Shown here in pieces: positions 43,395-47,310 of a DNA stretch of 64,000 bases. The stretch spans positions 30,707,847 through 30,771,846 of the forward strand of contig OX463859.1 in the NCBI GenBank assembly GCA_949825065.1. The letters run 5' to 3'. The number at the start of each line of letters is the position of its first letter. Within the stretch, counting starts at the first letter, position 1. A program made the translations under genes and the position numbers. This DNA is from Odontocerum albicorne. Taxonomy: Eukaryota; Arthropoda; Insecta; Trichoptera; Odontoceridae. The notes beneath the pieces were generated by a model that saw only the letters and a list, made by a program, of their open reading frames with translations, was not told where the DNA came from and made no database searches.

Positions 43395-46198
43395 AAGAAG
43401 TATTGTAAATACTATACATGTGTATAGTATTTACTAATGAAATTAGAAGTAAATACTGTATATAGATGAGTAATGAAATAAGAAGTAAATTATATATATA
43501 TGGGTGAGTTATGAAATAAGAAGTAAATACTATATATGGGTGAGTAATGAAATAAGAAGTAAATACTATATTTGGGTGAGTAATGAAATTAGAAGTAAAT
43601 ACTGTATATAGAGGAGTAATGAAATAAGAAGTAAATTATATATATATGGGTGAGTTATGAAATAAGAAGTAAATACTATATATGGGTGAGTAATGAAATA
43701 AGAAGTAAATACTATATTTGGGTGAGTAATGAAATAAGAAGTAAATACGATATATGGGTGAGTAATGAAATAAGAAGTTAATACTATATATGGATGAGTA
43801 ATGAAATAAGAAGTTAATACTATGCATGGGTGAGTAATGAAATAAGAAGTAAATACTATATATGGGTGAGTAATGAAATAAGAAGTAAATACTATATTTG
43901 GGTGAGTAATGAAATTAGAAGTAAATACTGTATATAGAGGAGTAATGAAATAAGAAGTAAATTATATATATATGGGTGAGTTATGAAATAAGAAGTAAAT
44001 ACTATATATGGGTGAGTAATGAAATAAGAAGTAAATACTATACATGGGTAAGTATTGAAATAAGAAGTAAATACTATACATGGGGTGAGTAATGAAATAA
44101 GAAGTAAATACTATATATGGGTGAGTAATGAAATAAGAAGTAAATACTATATTTGGGTGAGTAATGAAATAAGAAGTTAATACGATATATGGGTGAGTAA
44201 TGAAATAAGAAGTTAATACTATATATGGATGAGTAATGAAATAAGAAGTTAATACTATGCATGGGTGAGTAATGAAATAAGAAGTAAATACTATATATGG
44301 GTGAGTAATGAAATAAGAAGTAAATACTATATTTGGGTGAGTAATGAAATTAGAAGTAAATACTGTATATAGAGGAGTAATGAAATAAGAAGTAAATTAT
44401 ATATATATGGGTGAGTTATGAAATAAGAAGTAAATACTATATATGGGTGAGTAATGAAAAAAGAAGTAAATACTATACATGGGTAAGTAATGAAATAAGA
44501 AGTAAATACTATACATGGGGTGAGTAATGAAATAAGAAGTAAATACTATATATGGGTGAGTAATGAAATAAGAAGTAAATACTATACATGGGTAAGTAAT
44601 GAAATAAGAAGTAAATACTATACATGGGGTGAGTAATGAAATAAGAAGTAAATACTATATATGGGTGAGTAATGAAATAAGAAGTAAATACTATATTTGG
44701 GTGAGTAATGAAATAAGAAGAAAATACGATATATGGGTGAGTAATGAAATAAGAAGTTAATACTATATATGGATGAGTAATGAAATAAGAAGTTAATACT
44801 ATGCATGGGTGAGTAATGAAATAAGAAGTAAATACTATATATGGGTGAGTAATGAAATAAGAAGTAAATACTATATTTGGGTGAGTAATGAAATTAGAAG
44901 TAAATACTGTATATAGAGGAGTAATGAAATAAGAAGTAAATTATATATATATGGGTGAGTTATGAAATAAGAAGTAAATACTATATATGGGTGAGTAATG
45001 AAATAAGAAGTAAATACTATACATGGGTAAGTAATGAAATAAGAAGTAAATACTATACATGGGGTGAGTAATGAAATAAGAAGTAAATACTATATATGGG
45101 TGAGTAATGAAATAAGAAGTAAATACTATACATGGGTAAGTAATGAAATAAGAAGTAAATACTATACATGGGGTGAGTAATGAAATAAGAAGTAAATACT
45201 ATATATGGGTGAGTAATGAAATAAGAAGTAAATACTATATTTGGGTGAGTAATGAAATAAGAAGTAAATACGATATATGGGTGAGTAATGAAATAAGAAG
45301 TTAATACTATATATGGATGAGTAATGAAATAAGAAGTTAATACTATGCATGGGTGAGTAATGAAATAAGAAGTAAATACTATATATGGGTGAGTAATGAA
45401 ATAAGAAGTAAATACTATATTTGGGTGAGTAATGAAATTAGAAGTAAATACTGTATATAGAGGAGTAATGAAATAAGAAGTAAATTATATATATATGGGT
45501 GAGTTATGAAATAAGAAGTAAATACTATATATGGGTGAGTAATGAAATAAGAAGTAAATACTATACATGGGTAAGTAATGAAATAAGAAGTAAATACTAT
45601 ACATGGGGTGAGTAATGAAATAAGAAGTAAATACTATATATGGGTGAGTAATGAAATAAGAAGTAAATACTATACATGGGTAAGTAATGAAATAAGAAGT
45701 AAATACTATACATGGGGTGAGTAATGAAATAAGAAGTAAATACTATATATGGGTGAGTAATGAAATAAGAAGTAAATACTATATTTGGGTGAGTAATGAA
45801 ATAAGAAGTAAATACGATATATGGGTGAGTAATGAAATAAGAAGTTAATACTATATATGGATGAGTAATGAAATAAGAAGTTAATACTATGCATGGGTGA
45901 GTAATGAAATAAGAAGTAAATACTATACATGGGTGAGTAATGAAATAAGAAGTAAATACTATATTTGGGTGAGTAATGAAATTAGAAGTAAATACTGTAT
46001 ATAGAGGAGTAATGAAATAAGAAGTAAATTATATATATATGGGTGAGTTATGAAATAAGAAGTAAATACTATATATGGGTGAGTAATGAAATAAGAAGTA
46101 AATACTATACATGGGTAAGTATTGAAATAAGAAGTAAATACTATACATGGGGTGAGTAATGAAATAAGAAGTAAATACTATATATGGGTGAGTAATGA

Positions 46199-46398
46199 NN
46201 NNNNNNNNNNNNNNNNNNNNNNNNNNNNNNNNNNNNNNNNNNNNNNNNNNNNNNNNNNNNNNNNNNNNNNNNNNNNNNNNNNNNNNNNNNNNNNNNNNNN
46301 NNNNNNNNNNNNNNNNNNNNNNNNNNNNNNNNNNNNNNNNNNNNNNNNNNNNNNNNNNNNNNNNNNNNNNNNNNNNNNNNNNNNNNNNNNNNNNNNNN
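46199..46398. other. Assembly gap (200 N)
   Basis: Bases 46199-46398 are N. The gap lies within the 36-bp satellite next to a TA tract. The round number suggests a placeholder, so the true length of the array is unknown. Confidence 0.98.
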
Positions 46399-46838
46399 TA
46401 TATATATATATATATATATATATATATATATATATATATATATATATATATATATATATATATATATATATATATATATATATATATATATATATATATA
46501 TATATATATATATATATATATATATATATATATATATATATATATATATATATATATATATATATATATATATATATATATATATATATATATATATATA
46601 TATATATATATATATATATATATATATATATATATATATATATATATATATATATATATATATATATATATATATATATATATATATATATATATATATA
46701 TATATATATATATATATATATATATATATATATATATATATATATATATATATATATATATATATATATATATATATATATATATATATATATATATATA
46801 TATATATATATATATATATATATATATATATATATATA
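46399..46838. repeat. (TA)n microsatellite, 440 bp
   Basis: Uninterrupted TA dinucleotides from the gap edge to 46838, then tgaaatatatatatgaaata leading back into the 36-bp unit. The unit itself holds tatatat, a natural starting point for slippage. Confidence 0.97.
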
Positions 46839-47310
46839 TGAAATATATATATGAAATAAGAAGTAAATACTATATATGGGTGAGTAATGAAATAAGAAGT
46901 TAATACTATATATGGATGAGTAATGAAATAAGAAGTAAATACTATATATGGGTGAGTAATGAAATAAGAAGTAAATACTATACATAGGTAAGTAATGAAA
47001 TAAGAAGTAAATACTATACATGGGTGAGTAATGAAATAAGAAGTAAATACTATACATGGGTGAGTAATGAAATAAGAAGTAAATACTATACATGGGTGAG
47101 TAATGAAATAAGAAGTAAATACTATACATGGGTGAGTAATGAAATAAGAAGTTAATATTATACATCGGTAAGTAATGAAATAAGAAGAAAATACTATACA
47201 TGGGTGAGTAATGAAATAAGAAGTAAATACTATACATGGGTGAGTAATGAAATAAGAAGTAAATACTATATATGGGTGAGTAATGAAATAAGAAGTAAAT
47301 ACTATTTATG

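What the first reader, a model, noticed from the sequence alone, without database searches (positions are those of the whole stretch)
43395..47310. A 3.9-kb satellite grown from 12 codons of a LINE reverse-transcriptase gene, still in frame
The 36-bp unit ([12 protein letters not shown] in the plus frame) sits exactly where LINE F has a single copy of the related text. At 23620-23650 (actatatgggagagtaatga then aagattgg) and at 37690-37745 the segment is present once, directly before ERLEQVEEFCYLGS. In the array it is repeated about 100 times, and the RT text resumes in frame at 47311. The unit is a multiple of 3, so the frame survived. This is a birth-of-satellite case with source, boundaries and neighbours all visible.
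Basis: partly seen in the sequence, partly recalled or inferred. Interest (0 to 1): 0.9.

Follow-up and report, generated by a model that had tools for sequence, protein, structure and literature searches.

The report
Repeat array born inside dead retrotransposon
A short stretch inside a dead jumping gene has been copied head to tail about ninety times here, and at least fifty other dead copies of the same jumping gene in this genome carry arrays of the same stretch in units of different lengths, which makes them a natural set of replicates of how repeat arrays are born.

Summary
The 36-bp array is real (43435-46198 and 46851-47324; about 89 visible units), but a 200-N gap and a 454-bp (TA)n run split it, so its true length is unknown. 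Its unit is a segment of a LINE reverse-transcriptase region; 30 of 38 sampled LINE copies carry that segment recognisably and 0 of 38 repeat it. "Still in frame" is wrong. The main new result: this is not a single event. Fifty further arrays of the same LINE segment were found in this genome (51 in all), with periods from 20 to 90 bp. Of 703 pairs among 38 loci, none share both outer flanks. Periods 20, 30, 31, 36, 44 and 67 equal spacings of short direct repeats around the segment. Units within an array differ by a median 3.1%, LINE flanks from consensus by 14%. Best reading: recurrent slippage between short direct repeats after insertion, then expansion and local homogenisation. That this segment is a hotspot is suggested, not shown: a control search missed a known array. 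TE-derived minisatellites are a known kind.

The parts
42954..43395 (+). 5' LINE reverse-transcriptase text, decayed. The segment with the YADD-like motif is present twice (42954-43121 and 43168-43338, 70% alike); 43311-43352 matches 37635-37676 (86%)
   Evidence: self-BLAST of the window; sequence; Pfam RVT_1 match of two other copies of this LINE
43405..43434 (.). inverted repeat of unit text at the 5' edge (two 14-bp arms, 2-bp spacer)
43435..46198 (+). main 36-bp array, about 76 units, organised as a higher-order repeat of about 435 bp (12 units), 6.4 copies
   Evidence: TRF; unit string
46199..46398 (.). assembly gap, 200 N
46399..46852 (.). (TA)n run, perhaps grown from the ATATAT inside a unit
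   Evidence: TRF; origin inferred; array L041 also has a TA run at its 5' edge
46851..47324 (+). 3' block of 13 units, in frame with the downstream LINE text but with stops
47312..47675 (+). 3' LINE text ([14 protein letters not shown] and on), 70% alike to 37726-38106
37692..38106 (+). neighbouring copy of the same LINE with the segment once
23606..23768 (+). second neighbouring LINE copy, truncated upstream, with the 3' part of the segment once
56309..57162 (-). 55-bp array (about 15 units) grown from a different segment of another copy of the same LINE; flanking LINE text at 55941-56341
   Evidence: TRF; BLAST with 37873-38142 and 47470-47844

Best explanation
The array is a minisatellite born inside a dead LINE copy. 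The LINE segment GTGTGAAAGGAAAAGTAAATGCGATATATGGGTGAGTAATGAAAGATT holds several short direct repeats. After insertion, slippage or microhomology-mediated template switching between one pair (here TGAAAG...TGAAAG, 36 bp apart) made a first tandem duplication. Further slippage or unequal exchange expanded it, made the 435-bp higher-order repeat, and kept the units alike. The same happened at many other dead copies of this LINE; which repeat pair was used sets the period (AATG 20, AAAG 30, GAAA 31, TGAAAG 36, GAAA 67). Shown: the array, its source, the single-copy state elsewhere, arrays at 51 loci, junction repeats in about half of them, units more alike than the LINE copies are. Inferred: that the births are separate and came after insertion, the molecular step (replication slippage versus repair), and that expansion goes on.
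For: Source and single-copy state; 30 of 38 sampled copies carry the segment above all of 200 shuffles, 0 of 38 repeat it. Recurrence: 37 of the 38 loci listed are tandem (36 of 37 others fetched, plus the window), and 14 of 15 further loci fetched; total 51. BLAST finds LINE 3' text within 60 bp of the array end in 30 of these 36 and LINE 5' text within about 200 bp upstream in 24 of 36 (my tally). Separate places: 0 of 703 pairs of 38 loci share both outer flanks; on a star-like tree of LINE flanks the 30-bp class is no more clustered than shuffled labels (15 changes, shuffled mean 14.6). Mechanism: 29 of 51 arrays end in 4 or more bases that repeat the start of the array or of its unit consensus; repeat pairs of 4 bp or more in the LINE text have, among others, the spacings 20, 30, 31, 36, 44 and 67, at which arrays exist. 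Timing: within-array difference is below flank divergence in 45 of 45 arrays with at least 80 aligned flank bases, and below half of it in 40 of 45.
Against: 22 of 51 arrays show fewer than 4 bases of junction repeat, 7 of 51 none. The list holds 14 different spacings between 20 and 72, so some agreement is chance, and the periods 26, 34, 37, 40, 42, 46, 48, 57, 64, 86 and 90 are not on it (some look like a listed one plus an insertion, or composites). Two of the four 36-bp arrays (L035, L085) start at AAAG, not TGAAAG. Homogenisation could make an old or inherited array look young. The flank tree is almost unresolved (1 of 69 inner branches starred), so it cannot exclude a shared origin of some 30-bp arrays. 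The genome is rich in tandem arrays anyway (17 in the 64-kb window; 18 in 100 kb of flanks), so part of the recurrence is background.
Confidence: 0.78

Rival explanations
1. The tandem duplication arose in active LINE source elements and was spread by retrotransposition; loci inherited two or more units and then only varied in number, as internal tandem repeats of some retrotransposons do.
For: 20 of 51 arrays share the 30-bp period, and copies with just over two 30-bp units exist (L026, L043). Array loci are clustered against single-copy ones on the flank tree (12 changes, shuffled mean 23.5), though the single-copy set was picked by likeness to one window copy.
Against: 0 of 38 sampled copies have two units of the core, but that sample is of another look of the LINE (GTGAATAATG) than most arrays (GTGAGTAATG). 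Periods are many, and the 30-bp class is not clustered on the tree. Units within an array are more alike than the LINE copies are.
Confidence: 0.12
2. The first duplication was made by template slippage of the LINE reverse transcriptase during insertion of each copy; DNA-level expansion came later.
For: Arrays sit inside LINE copies, and many junctions show short repeats.
Against: In 34 of 45 arrays the unit consensus differs from the LINE core by more than units differ from each other, so copies had mutated before amplification, unless units were homogenised later. Tandem arrays are frequent outside this segment too (their sequences were not classified).
Confidence: 0.1
3. One satellite family invaded or converted LINE copies by homology (for example from circular DNA).
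For: Same core sequence at 51 loci.
Against: Unit lengths and unit sequences differ from locus to locus. Among the scored candidates the window's 36-mer has matches of 90% or more only in its own locus.
Confidence: 0.03
4. The in-frame 12-codon unit is kept by selection on a protein repeat.
For: Unit length 36 and an open frame in the consensus unit.
Against: Stops and frame shifts throughout; 22 of 51 arrays have periods not divisible by 3.
Confidence: 0.01

Closest known systems
TE-derived minisatellites of the human genome (Ahmed and Liang 2012, PMC3389668; passages seen; they cite Jurka and Gentles for Alu and Haber and Louis for the flanking-repeat model)
   Same: Tandem arrays seeded inside many separate TE copies; short direct repeats flank some of the units; preferred regions (hotspots) reported for AluS and LTR12
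   Different: Here the source is a reverse-transcriptase segment of a LINE in a probably arthropod genome; at least 51 arrays on one short segment, with several period classes that match different repeat pairs; one array shows a higher-order repeat
CRM1TR/CRM4TR of maize (PMC3648361; passages seen)
   Different: LTR/UTR of centromeric LTR retrotransposons; two families; the short direct repeats needed for a one-step origin were not detected there, whereas here they are in about half of the arrays
Satellites from retrotransposon-derived tandem repeats (PMC7004042; search listing only)
   Same: By its title, satellite origin from tandem repeats derived from retrotransposons
   Different: Not compared in detail; no long multi-locus amplification of this unit was seen here
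LINE-1/CR1-related satellites listed in review PMC9659126 (passages seen)
   Same: Satellite units related to LINE ORF2 text
   Different: Those are named satellite families; here the array still sits in its source copy between LINE flanks

Membership tests
TE-derived minisatellite (Haber-Louis type origin) | unit derived from a segment of the TE in which it sits | tested here: met
TE-derived minisatellite (Haber-Louis type origin) | other copies of the TE carry the segment once | tested here: met
   30 of 38 sampled copies carry it, 0 of 38 repeat it; 2 copies in the window
TE-derived minisatellite (Haber-Louis type origin) | short direct repeats bound the unit in the single-copy state | tested here: met
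   for the window: TGAAAG 36 bp apart. For the whole set: 29 of 51 arrays with 4 or more bases at the junction, 22 of 51 with fewer
TE-derived minisatellite (Haber-Louis type origin) | array arose after the TE inserted | tested here: inconclusive
   within-array 3.1% against flank 14.0% (medians of 45 arrays; the window array is not among the 45 because its aligned flank is short) supports it; homogenisation not excluded; no relatives of this genome are held
Satellite DNA proper | same unit in long arrays at several loci | tested here: not met
   36-mer matches of 90% or more only in this locus among the scored candidates; the longest other arrays fetched are about 1 kb
Non-LTR retrotransposon (LINE) | reverse transcriptase domain | tested here: met
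   Pfam RVT_1 in peptides of copies L050 (1.9e-10) and L061 (1.1e-7); the peptide of L066 that holds the segment itself had no Pfam match but is related to the matching part of another non-LTR-like reverse transcriptase (BLASTP E 4e-05, 42 residues). The window's own copies were not scanned
Non-LTR retrotransposon (LINE) | no long terminal repeats, endonuclease domain, target-site duplication | not tested
Protein-coding tandem repeat | frame kept through the array | tested here: not met

The most novel reading that the evidence does not exclude
One short segment of this LINE is a sequence-encoded satellite-birth hotspot whose rate is well above that of other parts of the same element, for reasons beyond its short direct repeats (for example fork pausing or R-loops on its G-rich, C-poor strand: GC skew 0.72 over 44001-46000), in a genome with a very high rate of tandem-array birth. 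A review sees no conclusive evidence that particular parts of a TE are preferred (PMC9659126, passage).
Probability: 0.22. Interest if true: 0.68.

Novelty: new member of a known kind. Interest (0 to 1): 0.5.

Why it matters
How satellites start is usually reconstructed from one old family. Here one genome offers at least 51 arrays on the same ancestral text, from two units to about ninety, with the source, the edges and the single-copy state in view. That allows a direct test of which repeat pair seeds an array, how fast arrays grow, and whether parts of a transposon are preferred, a point on which a 2022 review finds no conclusive evidence (PMC9659126, passage) and on which human data give hotspots for AluS and LTR12 only (PMC3389668, passages).

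Tried and rejected
Rejected: frame conservation; one mobile satellite family; duplication of one locus (0 of 703 pairs).

Hotspot, left open. Absolute counts do not prove it: from the array density and the 1839 first-look candidates I estimate that a dozen or more arrays per segment could be expected. The matched queries (three copies of a 36-bp LINE segment) point to it: the core lists 35 tandem loci of 39 (all 35 fetched and seen to be tandem), two other segments 2, perhaps 3, of 40 and 0 of 40, the last two judged from the lists alone. But each search scores only 40 candidates, one search lists only 35 of the 51 arrays I know, and one search did not list the 55-bp array of the window (56309-57162), which is made of that very segment and would score 82 bits, above nearly all that was listed. 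So controls undercount. Two further controls and a sample from the LINE type in which most arrays lie did not complete. Short direct repeats are dense at the core (7 pairs against 2 and 0 at the controls) but 37 of 304 positions have as many.

The sample of 38 has short two-copy repeats next to the core: by TRF in L072, L083 and L084, by eye in L058 and L073. Protein search with the L066 peptide: none of 26 candidates at E 0.001 or better. No sister species could be searched: the tool holds no relatives of this genome.

PMC9659126, PMC3648361 and PMC3389668 were seen as passages only.

Full report
OBSERVATION. Tandem Repeats Finder gives a 36-bp array at 43435-46198 (76.2 copies) and 46851-47324 (13.2 copies), split by 200 N (46199-46398) and a (TA)n run (46399-46852). 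The unit has 67 matches with up to 3 mismatches in the window, none in 100 shuffles. Sorting the units by sequence shows a higher-order repeat with a period near 435 bp. The 3' block is simpler (13 units). At the 5' edge two 14-bp arms of unit text face each other (43405-43434), as if a copying fork had folded back there (inference).

FRAME. The consensus unit reads [12 protein letters not shown], but the array does not stay in one frame: 15 of 88 parsed units are 37 or 38 bp long, and 52 of 88 are 36 bp and stop-free. The three-frame translation of the whole stretch is full of stops. The LINE text on both sides is decayed. The in-frame claim is rejected.

SOURCE. The array lies in a LINE reverse-transcriptase region. 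Peptides of two other copies (L050, L061) match Pfam RVT_1; the peptide of L066 that holds the segment matches no Pfam family but is weakly related to another reverse transcriptase of this genome. The normal text, seen in L066, runs SKVMVIEKCERKSNYDIWVNNERLEQVEEFCYLDSIFSDDGRVKKDIERHVAIGKKV; the repeated part is the stretch just before ERLEQV. In the window it is present once at 37692-37738 and in part at 23620-23650. In the genome, a search with the downstream text alone had 1839 first-look candidates, of which 40 were scored. I fetched 38 of those 40 (dropped: the window copy and one at a contig start). Of 38, 30 carry the segment above all of 200 shuffles and 0 repeat it; five have a short two-copy repeat beside it. 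These 38 are the ones most like one window copy and mostly read GTGAATAATG, whereas most arrays read GTGAGTAATG; the planned sample from that second type did not complete.

RECURRENCE. A search of the window's own genome (1.287 Gb) with three copies of the unit (68 candidates, 40 scored) listed 38 loci: this one and 37 others. There is a tandem array of the LINE segment in 36 of the 37; the exception is L044. BLAST finds LINE 3' text within 60 bp of the array end in 30 of these 36 (not L018, L025, L031, L034, L038, L041) and LINE 5' text within about 200 bp upstream in 24 of 36 (tally). A second search with the LINE consensus segment (379 candidates, 40 scored) gave 15 new loci that I fetched, 14 of them tandem. 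Total 51 arrays. Periods: 20 (5), 26, 30 (20), 31 (3), 34 (4), 36 (4), 37, 40, 41, 42 (2), 44 (2), 46, 48, 57, 64, 67, 86, 90. Period is divisible by 3 in 29 of 51.

INDEPENDENCE. None of 703 pairs among 38 loci has 200 bp or more in line on both outer flanks. The tree of LINE 3' flanks (72 rows; six rows with decayed flanks were dropped beforehand) is star-like; the 30-bp class needs 15 changes against a shuffled mean of 14.6, so it is not a LINE lineage. The tree is weak (1 of 69 inner branches starred). Arrays and single copies do separate (12 changes, shuffled mean 23.5), which the way the single copies were chosen may explain.

MECHANISM. In the single-copy text the longest direct repeat spanning the core is TGAAAG, 36 bp apart, the window's period. 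Pairs of 4 bp exist at 20 (AATG), 30 (AAAG), 31 (GAAA), 44 (AAAG) and 67 (GAAA), among 14 different spacings; arrays of these periods exist, and most of those at 20, 30 and 31 begin and end at those repeats, while the 67-bp one does so only nearly. Of the four 36-bp arrays two start at AAAG. In 29 of 51 arrays the end repeats 4 or more bases of the array's or the unit's start; 7 of 51 show none. Several other periods look like one of these plus a small insertion or a composite (reading). L026, L043 and L097 hold about two units and may be early stages.

TIMING. Median substitution within arrays is 3.1%, between unit consensus and LINE core 5.9%, and between 3' flank and LINE consensus 14.0%; within-array is below flank in 45 of 45 arrays with at least 80 aligned flank bases (6 of 51 dropped for short flanks, the window array among them). 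So arrays are younger than the LINE copies, or have been kept alike since.

HOTSPOT. With queries of the same design, the core lists 35 tandem loci of 39; a segment about 170 bp downstream 2, perhaps 3, of 40; a segment further down 0 of 40. These are ranked lists of 40 scored candidates, not a census. The contrast is therefore suggestive only. The core is rich in short direct repeats (7 pairs against 2 and 0 at the two controls), but 37 of 304 positions of the same text have as many. The background is high: tandem arrays make up 11,778 of 64,000 bp of the window, 1,759 of 38,646 bp of the LINE sample, and 6,591 of 99,937 bp of other flanks.

KNOWN. Human TE-derived minisatellites with flanking direct repeats and hotspots are described (PMC3389668, passages); repeated origin from similar retrotransposon regions is described in maize (PMC3648361, passages); a review states that there is no conclusive evidence that particular TE parts are preferred (PMC9659126, passages). 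This finding is a new and unusually replicated member of that kind.

Noticed in passing
window 3387, 11899, 15206, 16783, 20724, 22769, 24840, 32247, 33465, 36934, 37462, 60188 and others; also inside units of L012, L035, L091, L092, L095: The 8-mer TACTCGTA/TACGAGTA occurs 102 times in 279,698 bp of window and fetched loci against 6.5 expected (some are multiplied by arrays). It appears as an exact 6-bp insertion at TA in 2 of 80 aligned LINE 3' flanks and, by eye, in units of five arrays. It looks like the excision footprint of a Minos-type Tc1/mariner transposon (name and footprint recalled; the literature search did not confirm it). If the rate held genome-wide there would be several hundred thousand.
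   Followed up: partly
LINE 3' flanks of L025, L042, L054, L059, L014, L082: Of eleven 5-bp insertions in 80 aligned LINE flanks, six begin with TA and five of these are followed by TA (TATAG three times, TATGG, TACAA), the look of further TA-footprints.
   Followed up: no
window, whole: 17 tandem arrays of period 10 or more cover 11,778 of 64,000 bp of the window, more than in the other stretches measured.
   Followed up: partly
window 58179-59233 and 62528-63371: Two long arrays of nearly the same 55-bp unit about 3 kb apart, with matching sub-periods.
   Followed up: no
window 30570-31450: A unit of about 180 bp, repeated 4.8 times, carries tRNA-like text (GGGAATCGAACCCGTAACCC); looks like a tandem tRNA-derived SINE (reading by eye). 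ARAGORN calls no tRNA in the window.
   Followed up: partly
L020, strand opposite to the array, position 529 on of that strand: Open stretch of 417 aa of a different reverse transcriptase; best of 621 protein matches 63% identical; of the 10 listed matches with an organism name 9 are arthropods and one a fungus, so the genome is probably an arthropod's.
   Followed up: partly
L010 1525-1887 and 2179-2282; L030 772-1255 (array orientation): Other parts of reverse-transcriptase text also in tandem: a 121-bp YADD segment x3, a 27-bp segment x3.9, and a 32-bp KAYDRV segment x15 (reading by eye).
   Followed up: no
window 42954-43338: The LINE segment upstream of the array is itself present twice, about 214 bp apart and 70% alike, an older duplication in the same copy.
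   Followed up: no
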